Positions 5,086-17,671 of a DNA stretch of 64,000 bases are shown here, piece after piece (position 1 is the first letter of the stretch; the number at the start of each line of letters is the position of its first letter). Made by a program: the position numbers and the translations under genes. The notes under the pieces were generated by a model, which ran no database searches, was not told the DNA's origin, and saw only the letters and a program-made list of their open reading frames with translations. This DNA is from Anaeromyxobacter dehalogenans 2CP-C. GTDB lineage: Bacteria; Myxococcota; Myxococcia; Myxococcales; Anaeromyxobacteraceae. The stretch covers positions 806,001 through 870,000 of the forward strand of contig NC_007760.1 in the NCBI RefSeq assembly GCF_000013385.1. Direction: 5' to 3'.

Positions 5086-7692
5086 ATGGCGGGCAACAGC
5101 ATCCTCGTGATCAACGCGGCAGGCGCCGAGACGCGCGTCGCGCTGGTCGAGAACGGGACGATCCACGAGTACTACCTCGAGCGGAAGCGCGAGAAGGGGA
5201 TCGTCGGGAACATCTACAAGGGCAGGGTGGTCCGCGTGCTCCCCGGCATGCAGGCCGCCTTCGTGGACATCGGCCTGGAGAAGGCGGCGTTCCTGTACGT
5301 CGGCGACGTGTACGGGGATCCGGACTTCTCCGAGGAGTTCGAGCTCACCGAGGGCGAGCACCGCGCCGAGGTGACCGACGTGCCGAGCGAGCAGGAGGCC
5401 GAGGAGGCCGAGCTGCGCGCACGGACCGCTCCGGCCGAGCCCGCCGCCGCGCCCGCGGGGGTCGAGGGTTCACCGACCGTGGATGTCTCGCCTGCGGCCG
5501 TGCCCGCCGAGGCCGCGCAGGGCGAGGCTTCGCCGGCCGAGCCGACGCCGGTGGAGGCGGCTGCGGCCGAGCCCGCTCCGGCCGAGGCGCTGCAGGGCGA
5601 GCCGGCCGCCGCGGAGCCGCCGCCCGCGCCGCTCACGCCCATCGCGCTCACGCAGGAGATCGGCATGGCGCCGGTGCCGGCGATCCCGGGCCTGCCGGTG
5701 CCGCCGCTCGCCGACGCGCCCGCGGCCGAGGCCGAGCCCTCGATCGCGCCGGCGGAGGCGGTCGCCCCCGTCGCCGAGCCCGCCGAGCCCAGCGAGGCCG
5801 CGACGCCGGCCGCCGAGACCGCTCCCGCGGCCGAGGCTGCCGCGGCGACCGAGGCCGCGCCGGCCCAGCCCGCCCAGCCGGAGAAGGATCGGATCCAGGC
5901 TCCCGCGCGCGACGCCGCGCGCGAGGCCCGCGGCGACCGCGAGCGCGATCGCGGCGACCGCCGGCGCGACGAGCGGGGCCGGCGCGACGGCCGCGAGGGC
6001 CGCGATGGTCGCGAGGGCCGCGAGGGCCGCGAGGGTCGCGAGGGCCGCGAGGGCCGCGACCGCAACGGCCGGAACGGGCGCGAGGAGAAGCGCACCAAGG
6101 AGGCGAAGAACATCCAGGATCTCCTGAAGGAGGGCCAGGAGGTCATCGTCCAGGTCGCGAAGGATCCCATCGGGACCAAGGGCGCCCGCATCACCAGCCA
6201 CATCTCGCTGCCCGGCCGGCACCTCGTGTTCATGCCGACGGTGGACCACATCGGCATCTCGCGGCGGATCGAGAAGGACGGCGAGCGTCGCCGGCTCCGC
6301 GAGATCGTGGACCGCATGCGCCCGGAGGGCACCGGGTTCATCGTGCGGACCGTGGCCGAGAACGTCGAGGCGGCCAAGCTCGAGGCGGACATCCGCTTCC
6401 TCATCCAGGTGTGGAACGACATCATCCGCACCAAGGACAAGGTCTCGGCGCCCGCCCTGCTGCACGGCGACCTGGACCTCATCCTGCGCGCCACCCGCGA
6501 CCTGTTCACCGCGGAGGTGGGCAAGCTCGTCATCGACGACCGCGACGAGTACGAGCGCATCCTGCGCTTCGTGCACGACCAGGCGCCGCACCTCGAGTCG
6601 CAGATCGAGTCCTACCTGGGCGAGGAGCCGATCTTCGACGCGTACGGCATCGAGCAGGAGCTGAAGCGCGCCGCGCAGCGCAAGGTGTGGCTCAAGTCCG
6701 GCGGCTACATCATCATGGACCAGGCCGAGGCGCTCACGGCCATCGACGTCAACTCGGGCCGCTACGTCGGCAAGAAGAACCTCGAGGAGACGATCACCAA
6801 GATCAACGTCGAGGCCGCCAAGGAGATCGTCTACCAGCTCCGGCTGCGCAACATCGGCGGCATCATCATCATCGACTTCATCGACATGGACAAACCCCAG
6901 AACCGCGACAAGGTCTTCAAGGCCTTGCAGGACGCGCTGGGGCGGGACAAGGCCAAGACCAACGTCCTCAAGATCTCCGAGCTCGGCCTCGTCGAGATGA
7001 CGCGCAAGCGCGTGCGCGAGTCGGTGACGCGGGTGATGAACGAGCCGTGCCCGTACTGCGACGGCCGCGGGCACGTGAAGTCGAAGATCACCATCGCGTA
7101 TGAGATCTTCCGCGAGATCCGGCGCGAGGCGCCGCACTTCCCCGAGCCGGTGCTGGTGGTGAACTCCCACCCGGAGGTCGCGCGCATCCTGCAGGGCGCG
7201 GAGCGCGAGGAGCTCCGCTACCTGATGGACCGCTTCAACAAGACCATCCAGGTGAAGCCGCAGTCCGGGTACCACCAGGAGCAGTTCGACATCTACGGCC
7301 GGCAGGAGCGCGCCGAGCAGGGCGGCGGCGCGGGCGGCGGTGGCGGTGGTGGCGGCTCCGGAGGCGGCGGTGGAGGTGGCGGCTCCGGCTCCGGCGGCGG
7401 TGGCGGCGGTCGGGATCGGGATCGCGGCCGCGGGCGCGACCGCCGCGGCGGCCGGGGCGAGCGGAACGACCGCGGCGAGCGCAGCGATCGGAACGAGCGG
7501 AACGACCGCGGCGAGCGCAGCGATCGGAACGAGAAGAACGACCGCGGCGATCGCACCGAGCGCGGCGAACGCAATGAGCGCACCGAGCGCGGCCAGCGCG
7601 AGGATCGCGGCGAGCGCGGGGGCGAGCGTGCCGAGGGCGGCGAGCCGCGCACCGCGCCCGAGGCCCCGGCGCAGGGCGGCGAGAAGGCCTGA
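5086..7692 (+). CDS. rng: Rne/Rng family ribonuclease E/G with large low-complexity insertions
   Basis: Endoribonuclease for mRNA decay and rRNA/tRNA maturation. The ATG follows GAGAGGA at a good distance. Residues 1-85 hold the first half of the S1 region (GIVGNIYKGRVVRVLPGMQA). About 250 residues rich in Ala, Pro and Glu then intervene, ending in Arg/Asp-rich and GRE-repeat sequence (near bases 5990-6060). The S1 and catalytic core resumes at about residue 345 (VQVAKDPIGTKGARI). The DNase I-like catalytic aspartates are present in TAIDVNSG and IIIIDFIDMD, and the zinc-link cysteines in CPYCDGRG. The C-terminus has a polyglycine tract and RG/RN/RD-rich repeats that could bind RNA. It is 868 residues against about 490 for RNase G, all of the excess being low-complexity sequence. 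Whether it works as RNase E or RNase G cannot be told. Confidence 0.95.
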   Translation: MAGNSILVINAAGAETRVALVENGTIHEYYLERKREKGIVGNIYKGRVVRVLPGMQAAFVDIGLEKAAFLYVGDVYGDPDFSEEFELTEGEHRAEVTDVPSEQEAEEAELRARTAPAEPAAAPAGVEGSPTVDVSPAAVPAEAAQGEASPAEPTPVEAAAAEPAPAEALQGEPAAAEPPPAPLTPIALTQEIGMAPVPAIPGLPVPPLADAPAAEAEPSIAPAEAVAPVAEPAEPSEAATPAAETAPAAEAAAATEAAPAQPAQPEKDRIQAPARDAAREARGDRERDRGDRRRDERGRRDGREGRDGREGREGREGREGREGRDRNGRNGREEKRTKEAKNIQDLLKEGQEVIVQVAKDPIGTKGARITSHISLPGRHLVFMPTVDHIGISRRIEKDGERRRLREIVDRMRPEGTGFIVRTVAENVEAAKLEADIRFLIQVWNDIIRTKDKVSAPALLHGDLDLILRATRDLFTAEVGKLVIDDRDEYERILRFVHDQAPHLESQIESYLGEEPIFDAYGIEQELKRAAQRKVWLKSGGYIIMDQAEALTAIDVNSGRYVGKKNLEETITKINVEAAKEIVYQLRLRNIGGIIIIDFIDMDKPQNRDKVFKALQDALGRDKAKTNVLKISELGLVEMTRKRVRESVTRVMNEPCPYCDGRGHVKSKITIAYEIFREIRREAPHFPEPVLVVNSHPEVARILQGAEREELRYLMDRFNKTIQVKPQSGYHQEQFDIYGRQERAEQGGGAGGGGGGGGSGGGGGGGGSGSGGGGGGRDRDRGRGRDRRGGRGERNDRGERSDRNERNDRGERSDRNEKNDRGDRTERGERNERTERGQREDRGERGGERAEGGEPRTAPEAPAQGGEKA
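7461..7532 (+). repeat. 36-bp perfect tandem duplication inside the RNase E/G tail
   Basis: Bases 7461-7496 are repeated exactly at 7497-7532. They encode a 12-residue Arg/Asn/Asp/Glu-rich unit in the disordered C-terminal tail. Degenerate copies continue downstream to about 7600. The period is a multiple of three, so the reading frame is kept. The identity at the DNA level suggests a recent slippage duplication. Confidence 0.85.
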
Positions 7693-9585: not shown

Positions 9586-11619
9586 TCAGGCGGCCAGCGC
9601 GACGCGCCCGAGCGGCCGGACCGTGAGCTCGGGCGGGAGCTCGTCGTAGGCCAGCACCGCCACGGCCGGCAGGCGGGGCGCGAGCAGCGTTCGGAGCGCC
9701 CGGCGGACGTCGGCGCTGGTCAGCACCACCGGCGGCGCCGCCTGTGCCTCCGCCTCGGCGCCGATGCGTTCCACCAGCTCCGCCGCGATGCGCGGATCGA
9801 TCGCGAGCACATCGCCTGCGAGCCCCTCGCGGAGCACCTGCTCCGCGGCCGGATCGAGCAGCAGCGCGGCGAGCGGGCCCTCGCCCGCGTGGGCGTGCGC
9901 GAGGTGGCGGCGGAGCGCGCGCCGGGCGGCCTCCGCCAGCGCCGCCGGCCCGCGCCCCGCGCCGCCCGCCTCGAGCAGCGCCTCCAGGATCGTGCGCAGC
10001 GGTCGGATCGAGACGCCCTCCTCGACGAGCCGCCGCAGCACCTCCGCGAGCAGCGCGGGCGGGAGCTGGCGGCTCGCCTCGCGGACCAGCGCCGGCGCGC
10101 CCGGCTCGAGCGCGTCGAGCAGCGCCTGCACCTCCTGCACGCCGACGAGCTGCGGCGCGTTGCGGACGAGCGCCGCCGCGGCGGCCGCGAGCGCGCGATC
10201 GAGCGGGCCACGCACCGCGCCCAGCGCGCGGGCGCGGGGCGCGTCCGCCTCGGCGATCACCGACACCGCCCGCCCGGAGAGCGGATCGCGCTCGGCCGCG
10301 GCCTCGATGCCGACGAGCGCGAGCTCGTCCGGCGCGGCGAGGACCACCACCTGCCCGGCGGGCGCGGTGCCGCCGCCGGCGGGGACCTCGTCGATGAGCA
10401 GGCGGTGGCCACCCGCGGGGAGCGGGGCGGGCCGGAGCGCGACGGGCGGCGTGCGGACGCCGAGCGTGCGCCACACCGTCTCGCGCAGCGCCGCGAGCCC
10501 TTCCTGGCCGGCCGGGGTGGCGGCCGCGGCGAGCAGATCGTCCGCCAGCTCGAGCGCGAGCGGCGCCGCGCCGTCCGCGTCCACGCCGGAGGGGCCGGAC
10601 GCGCTCGCGGTCCCGGGCGCGGAGCGGGTCGCCGCGGCCGGCGCGCGCGCCCGGCGCGCGATCCACCAGGCGGCGGCGCCGCCCGCGCCGGCGAGCGCCA
10701 GGAACGGCGCGGCCGGCAGCCCCGGCGCGAGCGCGAGCGCGCCGAGCAGCGCGGCCACCGCCGCGATCGGCGCGGGCTCGGCGAGGAGCTGGCGCCCGAT
10801 CTCGCCTCCGAGCGTCGCGCCCTCCTCCTCGCCCGCCACCCGCGTCACGGCGATGCCCGCCGCGACGGCGACGAGCAGCGACGGGATCTGCGACGACAGC
10901 CCGTCGCCGATGGCGAGCAGCGCGTACCGGCGCGCGGCGTCGCCGGCCGTCATCCCGCGCAGCACGCCGGCCACGAGCCCGCCCGCCACGTTGACGAGCA
11001 CGATGGCGACGCCGGCGATCGCGTCGCCCTTCACGAACTTGAGCGCGCCGTCCATCGCGCCGTAGAGCTGGCTCTCGCGCTCCAGCGCGCGCCGCCGCCG
11101 CCGCGCGTCGGCGGCGTCCAGCGTCCCCGCCCGCACGTCGGCGTCGATGGCCATCTGCTTGCCCGGGAGCGCGTCCAGCGTGAAGCGCGCCGCCACCTCC
11201 GCGACGCGCTCGGCGCCCTTCGCCACCACCAGGAGCTGCACCAGCGTCAGGATCGCGAACACCACCGCGCCCACGACGTGGTTGCCCTGGACGACCACGC
11301 GGCCGAACGCCTCGATGACCCGGCCGGCCTCGCCGCGCGAGAGCACGAGGCGCGTCGAGCTCACGTTGAGCGCGAGGCGGAAGAGCGTGGTGAGCAGGAG
11401 GAGCGTGGGGAAGCTCGCGAACCGGAGCGCGTCGCGGGCGAACAGCGTGACCACCAGCACCGTGGCGGCCGCGGCCAGGTTCGCCGCGAGCAGCAGGTCG
11501 AGGACGCCCGGCGCGAGCGGTGTCACGAGCAGCAGCACGAGGCCCAGCACCGCGAGCGCGAACAGCGCCTCGCCGGAGGAGCGGAGGCGGGAGAGCAGGG
11601 CGTGGACGGGGATCGTCAT
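9586..11619 (-). CDS. sctV: type III secretion export gate protein SctV (FlhA/FHIPEP family)
   Basis: 677 residues, last gene of the type III operon. It has about eight N-terminal membrane helices and the FHIPEP-family segment from TLFRLALNVSSTRLVLS through RFTLDALPGKQMAIDADVRAG to GDAIAGVAIVLVNVAGG. The C-terminal cytoplasmic domain forms the nonameric ring that docks chaperone-substrate complexes. The ATG overlaps the sctU stop by 4 bases (ATGA at 11616-11619). By sequence alone it could be flagellar FlhA. The lipoprotein SctJ and SctI-like rod protein in the same operon, and the absence of any hook, ring or flagellin gene, favour a non-flagellar system. An Ala/Pro-rich linker separates membrane and cytoplasmic parts. 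Confidence 0.93.
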   Translation of the reverse strand: MTIPVHALLSRLRSSGEALFALAVLGLVLLLVTPLAPGVLDLLLAANLAAAATVLVVTLFARDALRFASFPTLLLLTTLFRLALNVSSTRLVLSRGEAGRVIEAFGRVVVQGNHVVGAVVFAILTLVQLLVVAKGAERVAEVAARFTLDALPGKQMAIDADVRAGTLDAADARRRRRALERESQLYGAMDGALKFVKGDAIAGVAIVLVNVAGGLVAGVLRGMTAGDAARRYALLAIGDGLSSQIPSLLVAVAAGIAVTRVAGEEEGATLGGEIGRQLLAEPAPIAAVAALLGALALAPGLPAAPFLALAGAGGAAAWWIARRARAPAAATRSAPGTASASGPSGVDADGAAPLALELADDLLAAAATPAGQEGLAALRETVWRTLGVRTPPVALRPAPLPAGGHRLLIDEVPAGGGTAPAGQVVVLAAPDELALVGIEAAAERDPLSGRAVSVIAEADAPRARALGAVRGPLDRALAAAAAALVRNAPQLVGVQEVQALLDALEPGAPALVREASRQLPPALLAEVLRRLVEEGVSIRPLRTILEALLEAGGAGRGPAALAEAARRALRRHLAHAHAGEGPLAALLLDPAAEQVLREGLAGDVLAIDPRIAAELVERIGAEAEAQAAPPVVLTSADVRRALRTLLAPRLPAVAVLAYDELPPELTVRPLGRVALAA

Positions 11620-12647
11620 GGCTTGGCCTCCAGGCCGTACAGGTGCGCGAGGACAGCGGCGGCGGCCTCGTAGAGCGCCTCGGGGATCTCGTCGCCGACC
11701 TCGGCGAGGCGGTGCAGCGCGCGGGCGAGCGCGACGTCGCGGACCACCGGCACGCCGGCCCGTCGCGCGGCGGAGCGGATGCGCGCCGCCGCGTCGCCCG
11801 CGCCCTTCGCGACGACGCGCGGCGCGCCGCCGTCCCGGCGGTCGTGGTGCAGCGCCACCGCCAGGTGCGTCGGGTTCACCACCACCACGGTGGCGCGCGC
11901 CACCGCCGGCGCCTCGAGCAGGGCGCGGTGGCGCCGCTGCCGCTCGGCGCGGTGGAGCGGATCGCCCTCGTCCTCCCGGTGCTCGCGGCGAACCTCGTCG
12001 CGCGTCATCATGAGGGCGCGCCGGTGGCGGCGGCGCACCAGCGCGAGGTCGAGCGCGCCGAGCACCGCGAACGCGGCGGCGAGGCGCCAGGTGAGCCCGC
12101 CGAGGACCGCAGGGGATCGCCAGAGCGCGGCCGGGCCGAGCCGCGGGAGCGCGGCGAGCGACGGCGCCGCGCCGGCGAGCCAGCCGCAGGCCAGCGCGGC
12201 CAGCACGGCGGCCTTGACGAGCCCCAGGGCGGCGGCGGCGAGCTGCGAGGTGGACAGGAGGCGCCGCAGGCCGCGCGCCGGGTCGAGCCGCTCGAGCCGG
12301 GGCGCGAGCGCGGCGAGGGAGAGGCCCGGGCCGGCCTGCAGCGCGGCCGCAGCGGCGCCGGCGAGGAGGGCGCCGCCGCAGGCGGGCAGCGAGAGCCGCA
12401 GGACCGCCGAGGCCGCGCCCTGGAGCGCGGCCGCCGGGCTCCCCGGCGCGCCGCCCGCCGCGGCGAGCGCCGCGCGGAGCATCGCGCCCAGCTCGGCGGC
12501 CGCGCCCGGCGCGGAGGCGGCCAGGGCCGCCAGCCCGCCGGCCAGCGCGGCCGCGCCGGTGAGCTCGCGGCTGACCGCCACCTCGCCGCGCCGGCGGGCC
12601 TCGCGCAGCCGCCGCGGGGTGGGCTGCTCGGTCCGGTTCCCGGTCAC
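11616..12647 (-). CDS. sctU: type III secretion substrate-switch protein SctU (FlhB family)
   Basis: 343 residues from a GTG start that overlaps the sctT stop as GTGA (12644-12647). The start is fixed by the family N-terminus TEQPTPRRLREARRRGEVAVS. Four hydrophobic segments follow, then the cytoplasmic linker (MTRDEVRREHREDEGDP) and the autocleavage motif NPTH within VVVNPTHLAVAL (near bases 11860-11890). Self-cleavage between Asn and Pro switches the secreted substrate class from early to late components. All key residues are intact. A much longer reading frame extends upstream, but it would run through sctT and lacks family similarity. Confidence 0.94.
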   Translation of the reverse strand: MTGNRTEQPTPRRLREARRRGEVAVSRELTGAAALAGGLAALAASAPGAAAELGAMLRAALAAAGGAPGSPAAALQGAASAVLRLSLPACGGALLAGAAAAALQAGPGLSLAALAPRLERLDPARGLRRLLSTSQLAAAALGLVKAAVLAALACGWLAGAAPSLAALPRLGPAALWRSPAVLGGLTWRLAAAFAVLGALDLALVRRRHRRALMMTRDEVRREHREDEGDPLHRAERQRRHRALLEAPAVARATVVVVNPTHLAVALHHDRRDGGAPRVVAKGAGDAAARIRSAARRAGVPVVRDVALARALHRLAEVGDEIPEALYEAAAAVLAHLYGLEAKP

Positions 12648-13420
12648 GGCCGTCCTCCGGAGAGCACGGTCACCAGCTGGCCGGGGAGCGCGGCCAGCGA
12701 GACCAGCCGCCCGGCGCCCGCGCTCGCGGCCGCCGCGAGCAGCGCCAGGCCCAGGGCCGCGCGCGCCGGCTGGGCCACGTTCACCGGGCCGAGCTGCGGC
12801 GCGACCCGCGCCGCCAGCGACAGGGCGAGATCGGCGGCCAGCACCCCCGCCGCGGCGGGCGCCGCCACCGCCACCGCGGCCGCGAGCAGCTCCGCCGACG
12901 CGTGCAGGACCACCTCGCGGGCCGCGCCGGCGGGAAACGGCGCCCCGGCGGGCAGCGTCGCGAAGCTCGCGAGCAGCCCGCGGAGCACCAGGCGATCTCC
13001 GCCGCCCCACGCGGCCAGCACCACCACCCAGTGGGCGAGCAGGTCGCCGGAGGCGCTCTCGCGCTGGCGGACCGGGGCCACGTGGAGCTCGGCCAGGGTG
13101 GCGCCGCGGAAGGTGTCGGCGAGGCGCCCGGCGGCGCGGGCCGCCTCCACCGGCGCCGCCGCGAGCAGGCCGAGCGCGAGGCCGAGCGCCGCCTCGCGGG
13201 CCGCCGCGACCGCGAAGGCGATCGCCTCCGCCGGCCCGGCCGGCGCCCCCGCCGCGAGCGCCGCGGCGCCGCCGAGGCCGAGCGCGAGGCCCAACCGCGC
13301 CACCGGCGGCGCCATCGGGCCGCCGAGCAGCGGCGAGAGCATCACCACCGGCGCGAGCCGCAGCGCGTGCAGGAGCGCGCCGGCGAGCCGCGGCAGGAGG
13401 TCCGGGGCGAGCTCGCTCAC
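12644..13420 (-). CDS. sctT: type III secretion export apparatus protein SctT (FliR family)
   Basis: 258 residues, almost all hydrophobic, with about six membrane segments. With SctR and SctS it builds the helical export gate in the inner membrane. The N-terminal LRLAPVVMLSPLLGG pattern and the position directly after sctS and before sctU match the universal R-S-T-U order. It overlaps both neighbours by four bases (GTGA at each junction), which implies translational coupling. It is very Ala-rich even for this genome. Confidence 0.9.
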   Translation of the reverse strand: MSELAPDLLPRLAGALLHALRLAPVVMLSPLLGGPMAPPVARLGLALGLGGAAALAAGAPAGPAEAIAFAVAAAREAALGLALGLLAAAPVEAARAAGRLADTFRGATLAELHVAPVRQRESASGDLLAHWVVVLAAWGGGDRLVLRGLLASFATLPAGAPFPAGAAREVVLHASAELLAAAVAVAAPAAAGVLAADLALSLAARVAPQLGPVNVAQPARAALGLALLAAAASAGAGRLVSLAALPGQLVTVLSGGRP

Positions 13421-13683
13421 GGCGCGATCCGGGGCACGAGGGCGAGGCAGTCGGCGGCGAAGCGCACCGCGCGCGCGCCGATCCAGGGCGCGGCGATCGC
13501 GAGCGCGACCACCACCGCGACGAGGCGCGGGACCACGGCGAGGGTCTGCTCCTGGACCTGGGTGGCGGCCTGGAGCACGCCGGTGACGAGGCCGACCAGG
13601 AGCGCGGCGCCGAGCGGCGGGGCCGAGAGGACGAGCACGAGGAGGAGCGCCTCGCGGCCGAGGTGGAGGAGCGCGGGATCCAT
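13417..13683 (-). CDS. sctS: type III secretion export apparatus protein SctS (FliQ family)
   Basis: 88 residues with the two-helix hairpin expected of FliQ/SctS: LGREALLLVLVLSAPPLGAA, then LVTGVLQAATQVQEQTLAVV with the conserved TQVQEQTL segment. The ATG at 13683 gives the family length; an upstream in-frame start would add a non-conserved arginine-rich 16-residue leader reaching into sctR. It begins 2 bases after sctR and overlaps sctT by 4 bases. Confidence 0.93.
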   Translation of the reverse strand: MDPALLHLGREALLLVLVLSAPPLGAALLVGLVTGVLQAATQVQEQTLAVVPRLVAVVVALAIAAPWIGARAVRFAADCLALVPRIAP

Positions 13684-13685
13684 GG

Positions 13686-14363
13686 TCACCCTGCGTACGA
13701 GAGCGCCAGCGCGCGGGCGAGGAGCTTCCACCCGTCCACGGCGACGAAGAGGAGCAGCTTGAACGGGAGCGCGACCGAGGTGGGCGAGAGCTGGGTGAGG
13801 CCGAGCGCGAGCAGCACGTTCGAGATCACCAGGTCCACCACCAGGAACGGCACGAACACCAGGAAGCCGATGGTGAAGGCCCGGCGCAGCTCCGACACCA
13901 CGAACGCGGGCGCGAGCACCGCCAGGTCGTCGTCGGCGGGGGCGGCGGCGTCCGGCGCGCGGAGCCGCCGCGCGACGTCGAGGAACGCCGCCCGGTCGTC
14001 GGGGCGCGCGAAGCGGGCGAGGAACGCCTTCACCGGCCCGGCGCCGCGCTGCAGGGCGGCCAGCGTGGCCGGGAGCCCGCGCTCGCCGGGCGCGGGCCGC
14101 GCCAGGGCGGCGGCCCGCTCCGCCACCGGCGCCATCACCAGCAGCGTCAGCACCAGCGCGAGGCCCGTGACGACCGTGTTGGGCGGCACCTGCGGCGCGC
14201 CCAGGGCGGAGCGCGCGATCGACAGGACCACCGAGATCTTGAGGAACGAGGTCAGCATCACCAGCGCCGCGGGCACGAGCGCGAGCAGCGCGAGCAGCAC
14301 CAGCATCTCGGCGGGCCGGTCGGCCACCGGGCCCGCGGACGGGACGAGGGCGAAGGCGATCAC
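13686..14363 (-). CDS. sctR: type III secretion export apparatus protein SctR (FliP family)
   Basis: 225 residues, GTG start overlapping the upstream FliO-like gene as GTGA. Family landmarks are the N-terminal LVMLTSFLKISVVLSIARSALG, the segment PPNTVVTGLALVLTLLVMAP, and the C-terminal FLVFVPFLVVDLVISNVLLALG and TSVALPFKLLLFVAVDGW. Five SctR subunits form the base of the export gate pore with SctS and SctT. The sequence is well conserved and complete. Confidence 0.95.
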   Translation of the reverse strand: MIAFALVPSAGPVADRPAEMLVLLALLALVPAALVMLTSFLKISVVLSIARSALGAPQVPPNTVVTGLALVLTLLVMAPVAERAAALARPAPGERGLPATLAALQRGAGPVKAFLARFARPDDRAAFLDVARRLRAPDAAAPADDDLAVLAPAFVVSELRRAFTIGFLVFVPFLVVDLVISNVLLALGLTQLSPTSVALPFKLLLFVAVDGWKLLARALALSYAG

Positions 14364-14719
14364 GGCCGGCCTCCCGGGGCGGCCGGCGCGGGCGCGCCGT
14401 CGAGCAGCGCGACGCGGTCGGCGCCGAACCCGACCAGCAGCCGGCGCCCGTCCACCTCCACCAGCGCCAGGCCGGCGTCGCGCGAGAGCGGCGCGCGGGC
14501 CACCACCACCAGCGCCGATGCGGGGCGCGCCGCGGCGCCGCGGCGGCGCGCCAGGACCGCGAGCGCGCCCACCGCGCAGGCGGCGAGCCCGCCCCGGGCG
14601 GCGGCGGGGGCCAGGTCGCCGGGGGCGCGGGAGAGGAGCAGGAGCACGCCGGCGGCGGCGAGCCCGGCCGCGGCGCGCGCGCCCGGCCGGGCGGGGAGCC
14701 CGCGGAGCCGGGCGATCAC
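14360..14719 (-). CDS. FliO-like small membrane protein in type III operon
   Basis: 119 residues from a GTG start that overlaps the sctQ stop as GTGA (14716-14719). Two hydrophobic segments near residues 17-30 and 41-56 are followed by a soluble domain with the FliO pattern LSRDAGLALVEVDGRRLLVG. In flagellar systems FliO helps FliP (the SctR homologue) assemble. It lies between the sctQ/FliN-type gene and sctR, the same place as fliO in flagellar operons. To my knowledge classical non-flagellar type III systems lack FliO, so this is an unusual retention. The call rests on the short C-terminal motif, topology and position. Confidence 0.7.
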   Translation of the reverse strand: MIARLRGLPARPGARAAAGLAAAGVLLLLSRAPGDLAPAAARGGLAACAVGALAVLARRRGAAARPASALVVVARAPLSRDAGLALVEVDGRRLLVGFGADRVALLDGAPAPAAPGGRP

Positions 14720-15690
14720 GGCGCCACCTCCAGCGAGAGGATGCGGACGCCCACCGCGCCCTCCACGTCCACCAGCTCGCCCCGCGCCACCGCGCGCTCG
14801 CCCAGCCGCAGGGTCACCAGCCCGCGCCGGTCGAGGTTCAGCGCGAGCACCGAGCCCGGCTCGAGCCGCGCCACCTCGGCGAGCGGGACGTCCACCCGGG
14901 CCAGCTCGACCTCGAGCGTCACCGGGAGCTGCGCATGCCGTTCGATCATCTCCGTCTCCTCCACGTGGAAGCCCTCCCCGTCGATCCGCCCGAGCGCCCG
15001 GAGCCCGCCGGGCAGGGCCAGCGCGTCGCGCCCGTCCGCGGGCGGGTCCACCACCAGCACGTCGCCGGGCTCGAGCGCGTCCAGCTCGGCCGCGGTGAGC
15101 GCGGCGGTCCCGCGGCGCAGCGAGCCCGGCACCGGGACGCGGCGGTCGAGGTCCGCCGGCCCGCGCAGCGCCCGGACCGCCGCGGGCGGCACCAGCAGGC
15201 GCGCGTGGCCACGGGCCTGCCCGGCCGCGATCTCCAGCTCGAGGGCGAGCGCGCCCGCGGGCTCGGCGGTGGCGCGGGCGAGGCGCGGCGCGAGCCGCTC
15301 CTCCACCTCGGCGACGCCGCAGGCGCCGTCGAGCGCGGCGAGGGCGAGCAGCTCGAGCGCGGTCGCCTCCACCGGCGTGAGCGCCGCGGCCGGCGCGGGT
15401 CCGCCGTCGCCGCCCGCCATCCGGTCCACCAGGCGCACCACCAGCGCCGGCTCCACCTCGAGGATCGCGGTCCCGGGGAGCGCCGGCAGGTCGATCGCGA
15501 TGCGCGCGGCGGCCGGGCGGGGAAGCGCGCGGCCCGGCACCGGCCGGCCCGTCACGGACACCTCGGCGCCGACGAGGTCCGAGAGCGCTCGCGCCGCCGC
15601 CACGGCGACCGCGGCCCCGAGCCGGCGGGGTGCGGCCGCCAGCTCGGCGTGGCCGCGCGAGACGGCGGGGAGATCGAACGGAAGCGCCAT
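14716..15690 (-). CDS. sctQ: type III secretion cytoplasmic ring protein SctQ (SpoA/FliM-FliN family)
   Basis: 324 residues. The last 85 residues are a SpoA domain (LPVTLEVELARVDVPLAEVARLEPGSVL ending GVRILSLE), as in SctQ, FliN and the end of FliM. The middle contains a degenerate second SpoA-like region (ELDALEPGDVLVVDPP). SctQ forms the sorting-platform pods that connect to the export ATPase through SctL. The ATG at 15690 (MALPFDLP) is chosen; a TTG 18 bases upstream is an alternative. About 120 non-coding bases separate it from the preceding small gene. Confidence 0.85.
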   Translation of the reverse strand: MALPFDLPAVSRGHAELAAAPRRLGAAVAVAAARALSDLVGAEVSVTGRPVPGRALPRPAAARIAIDLPALPGTAILEVEPALVVRLVDRMAGGDGGPAPAAALTPVEATALELLALAALDGACGVAEVEERLAPRLARATAEPAGALALELEIAAGQARGHARLLVPPAAVRALRGPADLDRRVPVPGSLRRGTAALTAAELDALEPGDVLVVDPPADGRDALALPGGLRALGRIDGEGFHVEETEMIERHAQLPVTLEVELARVDVPLAEVARLEPGSVLALNLDRRGLVTLRLGERAVARGELVDVEGAVGVRILSLEVAP

Positions 15691-15813
15691 GCGCGTCCGG
15701 ATTTCCAACCCGCGTGCCAGGGCCCGATCGCTCGGGACGACGCGGGGTTGTGGCGCGACGATGCGTCCGCCCGCGTCCGCCCCCGAGGCGGCCGGTCCGC
15801 GGCGCGGCCGCCC

Positions 15814-16140
15814 TCAGCCGGACACCCGCTCCCGGCACAGGCGCACCAGGGCCCCGGCCACGTCCGCCGGCGGAGCCCCGCCCAGGGCGAGTTCGGCCAG
15901 CAGCCGGGCCACCCGCGGGCGCTCGGCGGCGGCCGCCGCCTCGGCCCGGGCGCGCCGCTCCGCCGGCGCGGGCTCGACGGCCGCCGCGAGCGCCTCCAGC
16001 CGCGCGCGGCCCGGGAGCCGGGCGAGGCGGGCGGCCTCCTCCGCGGCGGCGGGAGACGGGCCCCGGGCGAGGAGGGCCTGCGCGCGCCCGGACGCGAGCG
16101 CGGCCGCGGCGGCGGCGAGGCGCCGGTCCGCGGCGGTCAC
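15814..16140 (-). CDS. small Ala/Arg-rich protein of unknown function between sctJ and sctQ
   Basis: 108 residues from a GTG start that overlaps the sctJ stop as GTGA (16137-16140). It is strongly helical by composition, with no membrane segment and no signal peptide. The gene is certainly part of the type III operon by spacing and codon use. By position it could be an SctK- or SctL-like sorting-platform adaptor, but I see no diagnostic motif and do not assign it. The frame remains open upstream into sctJ, but that part is the shadow of sctJ. Confidence 0.6.
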   Translation of the reverse strand: MTAADRRLAAAAAALASGRAQALLARGPSPAAAEEAARLARLPGRARLEALAAAVEPAPAERRARAEAAAAAERPRVARLLAELALGGAPPADVAGALVRLCRERVSG

Positions 16141-16856
16141 GACGGCTTCCCCCGGCGCCAGCGCACGCCCGCGCCGCCGCCCACCGCGATCGCCGCGGCG
16201 CCGGCGGCGGCCGCGAGCGCGAGCAGCACCGGCGAGCGGCCGCGGCGCGCGGCCGGGGGCGGCGCGCTCGCCTGCGGCGCCTCCGCGAACACCACCGACA
16301 CCGCGCCGGCGTCGAGCCCGTCGGCCGCCCCGGCCACCAGGGCCCGGAGCCCGGGCTCGAGCGCCCGCACCGCGGCGCACGCCGCCGCGCGGCACCGCAC
16401 CAGCACCGCGGCGCGCGGCGCGGGCCGCTCGCCGGGCCGGAACGGATCCGCCTGCGGCAGGCCGAGGTGCACGCGCGCGCCGACCACCCCGTCGATGGCC
16501 TCGATGCTGCGCGCGAGCTCGCCGGAGAGCGCGTGGAGGTACATCGCGTGCTCCTCGGTGGCGGTCGGGACCATCGAGCCCTTCGCGAGCACCGCGTCGA
16601 AGCCGGCCGGGCGCTGCCGCGGGAGGTCGCGCTCGGCCAGCACGCGCCGGGCGCGTGCGGCGTCGGCCGGGGCGACGCGGACCTCCCAGCCGCCGTCGGC
16701 GCCGTCCTCGCGCGCCTTCTCCGCGGCGATGCCGCCCTCGTCGAGCGCGACGAGGACGTCGTTCGCCTGCGGCTCGTCGAGACCGTGCAGGAGCGCCTCG
16801 CCGGAGCAGCCGGCGAGCGCGAGGGCGAGCGGGAGCGCGAGGGATGCGAGGCGCAT
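16137..16856 (-). CDS. sctJ: type III secretion inner-membrane ring lipoprotein SctJ
   Basis: 239 residues. The signal peptide ends in a lipobox (LALAGC, Cys17), so it is a lipoprotein anchored to the inner membrane facing the periplasm. The EscJ/YscJ/PrgK ring-building domains follow, including the loop GSMVPTATEEHAMYLHALSGELARSIE and VVGARVHLGLPQADPF. A C-terminal membrane helix (SPVLLALAAAAGAAAIAVGG) completes the family layout. The lipobox and short length separate it from flagellar FliF, which is larger and not a lipoprotein, so this gene identifies the operon as non-flagellar. It begins 10 bases after sctI. Confidence 0.94.
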   Translation of the reverse strand: MRLASLALPLALALAGCSGEALLHGLDEPQANDVLVALDEGGIAAEKAREDGADGGWEVRVAPADAARARRVLAERDLPRQRPAGFDAVLAKGSMVPTATEEHAMYLHALSGELARSIEAIDGVVGARVHLGLPQADPFRPGERPAPRAAVLVRCRAAACAAVRALEPGLRALVAGAADGLDAGAVSVVFAEAPQASAPPPAARRGRSPVLLALAAAAGAAAIAVGGGAGVRWRRGKPS

Positions 16857-16866
16857 GGCGGGTCCT

Positions 16867-17223
16867 CTAGAGCTGCGTGTTGAGCGCCTGCTTCACGGCC
16901 TGGGCGCCCTGCTCGACCAGCTTGGCGGCGAGGTCCACGGTCTGGACGGTCCGGTAGGCCTCCGCCTGCAGCCCGAGCAGCTCCTGGGCGGTGAAGGTGC
17001 GCCCGGAGCGGGCGGCGGTGAGCACCGCGTCGAGCCGGGCCTGGGCGCGCTCGACCGCGGCGAGCGCGGCGGCGCCGGCGGTCGGGCGCGCCGGCTCGCG
17101 CGCGGGCGGCGCGGCCGGGGCCGGGCCGGCGCGCGCCTCGAGCGTCTTCGCGAAGCTCTGCTGCGGCGCGACCGCGGCGGCCGGAAGGGCCGGGGCGGCC
17201 GCGCCCACCGGGGCGACGGGCAT
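16867..17223 (-). CDS. sctI: type III secretion inner rod protein SctI-like
   Basis: 118 residues. The N-terminal half is Ala/Pro-rich. The C-terminal 45 residues have the YscI/HrpB/PrgJ pattern: QELLGLQAEAYRTVQTVDLAAKLVEQGAQAVKQALNTQL, cut here into EAYRTVQTVDLAAKLVEQ and VKQALNTQL, ending in the family's typical NTQL. SctI joins the needle base to the SctRST gate. The order SctF-like, SctI, SctJ matches prgI-prgJ-prgK of Salmonella SPI-1. It lies 10 bases from each neighbour. Confidence 0.8.
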   Translation of the reverse strand: MPVAPVGAAAPALPAAAVAPQQSFAKTLEARAGPAPAAPPAREPARPTAGAAALAAVERAQARLDAVLTAARSGRTFTAQELLGLQAEAYRTVQTVDLAAKLVEQGAQAVKQALNTQL

Positions 17224-17233
17224 GGCGCGCTCG

Positions 17234-17671
17234 CTAGTGGATGTTCTGGATGGCGGCCCGGGCGCTGTCGTGCCGGACCTTCATCACGTTGGACACCGCG
17301 GTGAACTCGCGGCTCTCCCGCTGCATGTGCTCCTGCAGCTGGAGGTACTGGAGGTTGAAGGTCTGGGCCTCGCGCTGCAGCGCGCGCGTGGCGTCGAGGA
17401 CGTCGCCGCCCGCGCCGCCGCCCGGCGCCCCGGTGAGCGCGCCGGCCAGCGGGGAGCCGGCGAGCGGCGACCCGCCGGCGGCCGCGGCGCCGGAGCGGAT
17501 GGCGGCGGACAGGATGGTGCCGCCCGGGATGATGGGCGCGGCGAGCTCGACGGTGGCGGCCACCCCGCGGACCAGCCCCTCGGCGGCGCCGCGCAGGGCG
17601 CTGTCGAAGCGCCCGGGCAGCGCGCGCTGGGTGCTGGCGGGGGCGACGTGGATCGACTCGATTCGGTTCAT
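17234..17671 (-). CDS. candidate type III needle protein (SctF-like) with long N-terminal extension
   Basis: 145 residues, first gene of the operon. Residues 1-90 are Ala/Gly-rich with a hydrophobic stretch near 39-60. Residues 94-145 form one or two helices, and the last 20 ([20 protein letters not shown]) match the end of the PrgI-type needle subunit position by position in the pattern SN-V-KV-D-AAI-QN. Position in front of sctI and sctJ is where sctF sits in SPI-1-type operons. Known needle subunits are only about 80 residues, so this would be a long variant. An alternative is an operon-specific secreted protein or chaperone. The ATG at 17671 is the last Met before the conserved part; longer frames run into the divergent neighbour. 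Confidence 0.55.

What the first reader, a model, noticed from the sequence alone, without database searches (positions are those of the whole stretch)
9586..17671. Type III secretion operon with flagellar gene order and a FliO-like gene, lacking ATPase and secretin nearby
Eleven minus-strand genes, almost all overlapping as GTGA or ATGA, run SctF-like, SctI, SctJ, unknown, SctQ, FliO-like, SctR, S, T, U, V. From SctQ on, this equals the flagellar order fliN-fliO-fliP-fliQ-fliR-flhB-flhA. Yet SctJ is a short lipoprotein (lipobox LALAGC) and SctI and a needle-like protein are present, which are non-flagellar hallmarks. SctN, SctL, SctC and SctD are missing from both flanks. Comparative work on type III evolution has argued that myxobacterial systems branch early and lack a secretin; a retained FliO-like gene would fit an intermediate between flagellum and injectisome.
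Basis: partly seen in the sequence, partly recalled or inferred. Interest (0 to 1): 0.7.

Follow-up and report, generated by a model that had tools for sequence, protein, structure and literature searches.

The report
Ancient myxobacterial secretion operon, hidden needle
This is a known, early-branching bacterial protein-export machine related to the flagellum and to the 'injection needle' of pathogens; it keeps a flagellar helper gene (FliO), its motor genes sit 1 Mb away, and, contrary to published descriptions of its family as needle-less, it appears to encode a needle-type subunit.

Summary
In detail: eleven minus-strand genes, 9586-17671, order F-I-J-X-Q-O-R-S-T-U-V, with a real FliO homologue (PF04347, 32.4 bits, cut-off 22). 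But the core idea is published: it is the 'short' Myxo NF-T3SS of Abby & Rocha 2012, and FliO in Myxococcota NF-T3SSs was reported in 2025. The genome is very probably Anaeromyxobacter dehalogenans 2CP-C. The ATPase is not missing: SctL-SctN and an SctO-like gene sit 1 Mb away, downstream of rpoBC, in nine of nine related genomes, and SctN belongs to the Myxo clade. No SctD or T3SS secretin was found; the three genomic secretins are GspD, PilQ and Tad. I did not find this in the literature held: the first gene, and paralogues in the 'needleless' predation system (T3SS*) of Myxococcus relatives, are SctF (needle) homologues. That is strong for the long-locus proteins and transitive for the window protein. 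Likely function: proton-motive-force/ATPase-driven export of rod and needle-type subunits to the periplasm, with an unknown outer-membrane exit.

The parts
17234..17671 (-). F: SctF-like (needle-type) subunit, 145 aa; conserved about 57-residue C-terminal helix, low-confidence/disordered N-terminal part
   Evidence: Conserved first gene in short loci and at the head of long loci; transitive SctF homology; AF2 helix 87-144
16867..17223 (-). I: SctI (inner rod) candidate, 118 aa
   Evidence: Position before SctJ; matches long-locus I (hhalign E 7.7e-16); not significant against two annotated SctI; SctI reported for the short locus in PMC3459982
16137..16856 (-). J: SctJ inner-ring lipoprotein, 239 aa, lipobox LALAGC
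   Evidence: PF01514 87.4 bits; TIGR02544 135.4 bits vs fliF 36.9
15814..16140 (-). X: fast-evolving 108-aa protein, position of SctK/FliG, function unknown
   Evidence: Conserved in position; no Pfam family; not FliG by profile comparison
14716..15690 (-). Q: SctQ C-ring protein, 324 aa (FliM-like N-terminal part + FliN domain)
   Evidence: TIGR02551 98.7 bits; PF01052; PF02154 E 6.9e-6
14360..14719 (-). O: FliO homologue, 119 aa
   Evidence: PF04347 32.4 bits > 22; hhalign short-locus FliO vs flagellar FliO E 3.3e-8
13686..14363 (-). R: SctR export gate, 225 aa
   Evidence: PF00813 214 bits; NF009438 248.7 > 179; TIGR01102 208.9 > 208.6
13417..13683 (-). S: SctS export gate, 88 aa
   Evidence: PF01313 91.6 bits
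12644..13420 (-). T: SctT export gate, 258 aa
   Evidence: PF01311 108.8 bits; TIGR01401 97 vs fliR 81.6
11616..12647 (-). U: SctU switch protein, 343 aa, NPTH motif
   Evidence: PF01312 295 bits; TIGR01404 262 vs flhB 242
9586..11619 (-). V: SctV export gate, 677 aa
   Evidence: TIGR01399 622 vs FlhA 523 bits; trees

Best explanation
[quoted passage not shown] It encodes an inner-membrane export gate (SctR/S/T/U/V, with FliO as the likely assembly factor for the SctR ring), a lipoprotein ring (SctJ), a C-ring (SctQ), a rod candidate (SctI) and an SctF-family subunit (F). In Anaeromyxobacteraceae the SctL-SctN ATPase and an SctO-like gene come from a mini-operon about 1 Mb away, downstream of rpoBC. 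Proposed mechanism (inferred): proton motive force plus the distant ATPase drive export of SctI and F across the inner membrane, to build a short rod or needle in the periplasm. With no SctD and no T3SS secretin, the outer-membrane step is missing or is borrowed from another channel. Shown here: homologies, genome-wide presence and absence, phylogeny, conservation. Inferred: that distant genes work together, filament formation, substrates, biological role.
For: Gene identities. V and RSTUV trees: NF vs flagella 100*, Myxo short 100*, other NF 99-100*. Distant ATPase: SctN best model III_secr_ATP 555 bits, SctL best models YscL-type; SctN is sister to long-locus SctN 96/92* and outside FliI (98/97*); rpoB-rpoC-sigma-SctL-SctN conserved in nine of nine genomes whose locus was complete, including one complete genome (G019) with a single SctN/FliI-type ATPase and a single FliO. 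Secretins are GspD, PilQ and Tad. SctD model never over its cut-off. F: long-locus paralogues pass PF09392 (30.4 and 33 bits > 29.4); their profile hits T3SS needles as the top 13 of 177,635 PDB sequences; the joint profile as the top 11; short F vs long F2 hhalign E 1.6e-12, score 60.9 vs shuffled maximum 21.5; the joint profile, built without them, finds proteins that Pfam scores as SctF at 63-71 bits in injectisome loci. Conserved downstream block IHF-YihY-868aa in Myxococcaceae shows vertical descent.
Against: No expression or functional data. Short-locus F compared directly with three bona fide SctF is only marginal (hhalign 18.5, shuffled maximum 18.0), so the link runs through the long-locus proteins. 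F is longer (145 aa) than typical needles, and AF2 gives one confident helix and otherwise low confidence. SctI is not significant against two annotated SctI. SctO is called by position and size only. In three Myxococcaceae genomes the short system has no ATPase of its own. By citation, the M. [quoted passage not shown]
Confidence: 0.8

Rival explanations
1. The locus is a decaying relic of a normal injectisome that has lost secretin, SctD, needle and linked ATPase.
For: Missing SctC/SctD; split ATPase; PMC3459982 notes that earlier annotation called the M. xanthus loci relics.
Against: All genes intact with strong coding signal; F-I-J-X-Q-O-R-S-T-U-V order kept across families; the ATPase is retained in a genome with no second ATPase of its type; phylogeny outside conventional injectisomes.
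Confidence: 0.06
2. FliO was captured secondarily from a flagellum and says nothing about ancestry.
For: FliO is too short for a reliable tree; it also occurs in one NF-T3SS nested among conventional injectisomes (L203); PMC12403147 speaks of repurposing and reports it in several Pseudomonadota NF-T3SSs.
Against: FliO sits at the same Q-FliO-R position in the short, long and f11 loci, which form the early NF branches. One retained copy is simpler than three captures into the same slot. It is present in Anaeromyxobacter genomes with no second FliO.
Confidence: 0.25
3. F is another early type III substrate (rod, tip or translocon-like helical protein) and not a needle subunit.
For: F is 145 aa rather than about 80; direct similarity to bona fide SctF is marginal; single Pfam matches also include HrpF, SrfA and HrpA.
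Against: Profile searches that include F list T3SS needles as the top 11 PDB sequences; T3SS_needle_F and HrpA_pilin are among the four families most often matched by members; SctI is a separate gene; long loci carry 71-75-aa stand-alone relatives of needle size.
Confidence: 0.2
4. The distant SctL-SctN genes serve the flagellum, and the short T3SS runs on proton motive force alone.
For: No linkage to the T3SS operon.
Against: The flagellum has its own FliI; SctN groups with NF ATPases at 98/97* and with Myxo SctN at 96/92*; complete genome G019 with a single FliO still keeps SctN beside rpoC.
Confidence: 0.07

Closest known systems
'Short' Myxo NF-T3SS locus of Cystobacterineae (Abby & Rocha 2012, PMC3459982)
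   Same: Same genes (secretion apparatus, SctJ, SctI, no secretin, no SctD), same clade, same phylogenetic position; the paper says all sequenced Cystobacterineae have it and names Anaeromyxobacter.
   Different: The paper reports no SctF and does not mention FliO in its text; here an SctF-like gene, FliO and an rpoBC-linked ATPase module are found.
M. xanthus 'needleless' T3SS* (long locus, MXAN_2434-2464; PMC12075869, PMC10433427)
   Same: Sister lineage with FliO, no secretin, and an F gene at the head of the locus.
   Different: Has SctD and its own SctL/N; acts in prey lysis with the Kil/Tad pilus; carries additional SctF-like genes.
FliO in Myxococcota NF-T3SSs (PMC12403147, PNAS 2025)
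   Same: Reports FliO homologues in both M. xanthus NF-T3SSs.
   Different: In the text read here it does not discuss Anaeromyxobacter, the needle subunit or the ATPase location.
Flagellar export apparatus (fliNOPQR-flhBA)
   Same: FliO at the same place; homologous export gate; U followed by V, like flhB-flhA.
   Different: Phylogenetically separate at 100*; the genome has its own flagellar export set 0.75 Mb away.
Secretin-bearing injectisomes (Ysc, SPI-1, Hrp, Rhizo, Chlamydiales)
   Same: SctJ lipoprotein, SctQ, SctRSTUV, SctLN, SctF family.
   Different: They have SctC and SctD; the sampled ones form a 99-100* clade that excludes this operon.

Membership tests
Myxo-type NF-T3SS, short locus | SctJ, Q, R, S, T, U, V present in conserved order | tested here: met
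Myxo-type NF-T3SS, short locus | Branches with Myxo systems, outside other NF-T3SSs and outside flagella | tested here: met
Myxo-type NF-T3SS, short locus | No T3SS secretin, no SctD | tested here: met
Myxo-type NF-T3SS, short locus | Own NF-type ATPase | tested here: met
   Unlinked SctN in the Myxo clade
Myxo-type NF-T3SS, short locus | Inner rod SctI | tested here: inconclusive
   Matches long-locus I (E 7.7e-16) but not two annotated SctI
Myxo-type NF-T3SS, short locus | Absence of SctF, as stated in PMC3459982 | tested here: not met
   The orthologous gene is also present in Myxococcaceae short and long loci, so this revises the description of the whole family and does not exclude this member; the absence was reported as a search result, not as a criterion
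Flagellum | SctV/SctN orthologues group with FlhA/FliI | tested here: not met
Flagellum | Rod, hook, FliG and Mot genes in the operon | tested here: not met
   None among the eleven genes
Secretin-bearing injectisome | SctC secretin and SctD ring protein | tested here: not met
SctF needle subunit family (F gene) | Sequence-profile match to PF09392/known needles | tested here: inconclusive
   Met for long-locus paralogues; transitive for window F; direct test marginal
SctF needle subunit family (F gene) | Polymerises into a hollow filament after export | not testable with these tools
   Needs experiment
FliO (gene O) | FliO profile over curated Pfam cut-off, placed directly before the FliP/SctR gene | tested here: met

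The most novel reading that the evidence does not exclude
The myxobacterial T3SSs described as needle-less, including the predation system T3SS*, encode SctF-family needle subunits, so the early-branching NF-T3SSs already had a needle-type filament and retained FliO before any secretin was recruited.
Probability: 0.7. Interest if true: 0.72.

Novelty: already known. Interest (0 to 1): 0.5.

Why it matters
The locus belongs to the group used to argue that injectisomes arose from flagella. If these systems carry a needle-type subunit together with FliO and no secretin, the published order of events (needle lost in Myxo systems, secretin gained later) changes to an early rod-and-needle exporter that ended in the periplasm. 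It also gives a direct experiment in the predation model M. xanthus, where a needle was thought to be absent and the Kil pilus tip was proposed to take its place.

Tried and rejected
2) X as FliG: rejected (hhalign probability 0.1; no Pfam). 3) PDB search with the first F alignments (A1, A2): no needle hit; significant only with the second set of long-locus relatives in the profile. 4) Short F directly vs three bona fide SctF: marginal. 5) Fold search with the AF2 model of a 71-aa long-locus needle-like protein: no needle, all E above 3, a helical hairpin being too simple. 6) AF2 of F: mean pLDDT 58, only the C-terminal helix modelled with confidence. 7) SctI vs FliE: nothing. 8) Careful tree for the RSTUV concatenation did not finish; the quick tree is reported. 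9) I mislabelled L173 (flagellar) and L208 (NF) in the first V tree; their placement showed it and I relabelled them.
Full report
WHAT IS THERE. The window is 806,001-870,000 of a 5,013,479-bp one-contig genome. The size fits Anaeromyxobacter dehalogenans 2CP-C (5.01 Mb, PMC2330069), and the nearest relative G008 has 5,029,329 bp, exactly the size listed for strain 2CP-1 in PMC11509652. Best profile matches: J = YscJ-type, Q = SpaO/YscQ, R = yscR, T = SctT, U = SctU, V = hrcV, each above the flagellar counterpart; S = Bac_export_3. Gene O is FliO by Pfam (32.4 bits, cut-off 22) and by comparison with flagellar FliO (hhalign E 3.3e-8). Six of ten junctions overlap by 4 nt. The Q-R-S-T-U order is shared with ordinary injectisomes, so only FliO, and U followed by V, are flagellum-like.

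WHAT IT BELONGS TO. A SctV tree of 53 proteins and a concatenated RSTUV tree of 38 separate flagella from NF-T3SS (100*). They show the short Myxo clade (100*), the long Myxo clade (100*) and all other NF-T3SSs, Chlamydiales included (99-100*). The loci sampled as 'other NF' belong to lineages known to carry secretins; I did not test each for one. Adding Myxococcota outside the class shows a further group (code f11) as the probable sister of the short clade (82); short plus f11 split first and long next (96*). In one search, without f11, short and long were sisters instead (92), so the order of the two Myxo branches is open. This reproduces Abby & Rocha 2012 (PMC3459982), who named the group, reported short and long loci, the lack of a secretin, and the presence of the short locus in all sequenced Cystobacterineae, Anaeromyxobacter being mentioned. 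FliO in Myxococcota NF-T3SSs is in PMC12403147.

THE ATPASE IS ELSEWHERE. The genome has two FliI/YscN-type ATPases over the cut-off. One lies in the flagellar cluster. The other lies at 1,830,238-1,831,545 between SctL (1,829,639-1,830,241) and an SctO-like gene (1,831,542-1,832,021), directly downstream of rpoB, rpoC and a sigma factor. SctN fits III_secr_ATP best (555 bits) and SctL the YscL-type models. The same rpoBC-sigma-SctL-SctN arrangement is kept in eight further Anaeromyxobacteraceae loci examined (a tenth, L238, is cut by my stretch). In a careful tree these SctN form one clade (100/98*), sister to long-locus SctN (96/92*), apart from FliI (98/97*). Three Myxococcaceae genomes (G012, G025, G037) have only the long-locus ATPase, so their short system must borrow it or do without. 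In f11 genome G082 the L, N and O-like genes sit inside one operon, F-I-J-X-L-N-O-Q-FliO-R-S-T, which suggests that linkage was ancestral and lost in Myxococcia.

NO SECRETIN, NO SctD. Three secretins exist: GspD (524.7 bits, in a T2SS cluster), PilQ (464.6 bits, in a type IV pilus cluster) and one inside a Tad-type cluster that passes no curated secretin cut-off. The T2SS, pilus and Tad labels of the neighbours rest on my reading of the translations, not on a family search of each. The YscD model finds nothing over its cut-off (best 28.7 of 86).

THE NEEDLE. PMC3459982, PMC10433427 and PMC12075869 state that Myxo systems or T3SS* lack a needle. Gene F heads every short locus in which the upstream region was complete, and a relative heads the long locus. 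Individual Pfam matches are weak but point mostly to T3SS filaments: T3SS_needle_F, HrpA_pilin and HrpF. A scan of 195 Myxococcota genomes found PF09392 matches in many long loci. Those in G032 (30.4-33 bits; inside a long locus) and G072 (33.5 bits) pass the 29.4-bit cut-off. Two Myxococcus-type long loci carry 71-aa stand-alone proteins (E 5-7e-5), and G012 carries two identical needle-sized proteins on the opposite strand. A profile of the long-locus proteins finds T3SS needles as its 13 best PDB sequences (E 3e-7 to 0.04). The joint profile with the window's family finds needles as the best 11. Short F against long F2 gives hhalign E 1.6e-12 (score 60.9; 200 column shuffles, maximum 21.5). 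In reverse, the joint profile, built without them, finds proteins in injectisome loci that Pfam then scores as SctF at 63-71 bits. A direct comparison of short F with three such SctF is only marginal, so for the window's own protein the case is transitive. AF2 gives helix-turn-helix for the 71-aa form (pLDDT 72) and one confident C-terminal helix for F. Fold search was uninformative.

FliO AND ANCESTRY. FliO stands between Q and R in the short, long and f11 loci and was not found in the NF loci L136-L172 taken from other phyla, apart from the myxobacterial L147. One exception nested among conventional injectisomes is L203, Granulosicoccaceae, and PMC12403147 lists further Pseudomonadota. Retention from a flagellar ancestor followed by losses is the simplest reading; capture cannot be excluded because the protein is too short for a tree.

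HOW IT PROBABLY WORKS. Shown: an inner-membrane export gate, lipoprotein ring, C-ring, rod candidate, needle-type protein, FliO and a distant NF ATPase, all conserved; a conserved IHF-YihY-868aa block beside the operon shows vertical inheritance. Inferred: FliO helps to assemble the SctR ring, as in flagella; the distant SctL-SctN-SctO-like module docks on SctQ/SctV; SctI and F are the first substrates and form a periplasmic rod or needle. What happens at the outer membrane, and the biological role, are unknown. By citation, the M. [quoted passage not shown]

VERDICT. Observation confirmed; interpretation partly right and largely published. Not found in the literature held: the SctF-like genes, the conserved rpoBC-linked ATPase module, the lack of a second SctN in Myxococcaceae, and the f11 relatives with a linked ATPase. 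The label 'already known' refers to the system; these four features are additions to it. The absence of a report was judged from six searches of the open-access library only; most subscription papers, including Thiery et al. 2022, were not readable.

Noticed in passing
L014:11639-14021 (genome 1,829,639-1,832,021): SctL-SctN-SctO-like mini-operon directly downstream of rpoB-rpoC and a sigma factor, conserved in Anaeromyxobacteraceae; a T3SS ATPase tied to the RNA polymerase locus.
   Followed up: yes
L129:3251-3475 and 5666-5890 (G012): Two identical needle-sized proteins on the strand opposite to the long T3SS locus of a Myxococcus-type genome.
   Followed up: partly
L064:14598-14882, L103:9969-10259, L114:4778-5053, L115:8874-9161, L116:13672-13962: Long loci carry a separate roughly 94-aa gene like the FlhB/SctU C-terminal domain just after full-length sctU.
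   Followed up: no
L120 (G082) and L131 (G080): Another Myxococcota group has a related operon with linked ATPase genes and FliO; its SctV (e.g. L250, L251, L256) matches the family in two separate pieces with the middle of the profile unmatched.
   Followed up: partly
L203:7614-7937: FliO homologue in a Granulosicoccaceae NF-T3SS that branches among conventional injectisomes.
   Followed up: partly
L103:7292-8901 (G032): Two identical tandem copies of a 233-aa needle-like protein in a long locus; G139 has five PF09392-like matches spread over several contigs.
   Followed up: no
G000:C1 about 786,700-799,500 (L018): A type II secretion (gsp) cluster lies about 7 kb upstream of the window start.
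   Followed up: no
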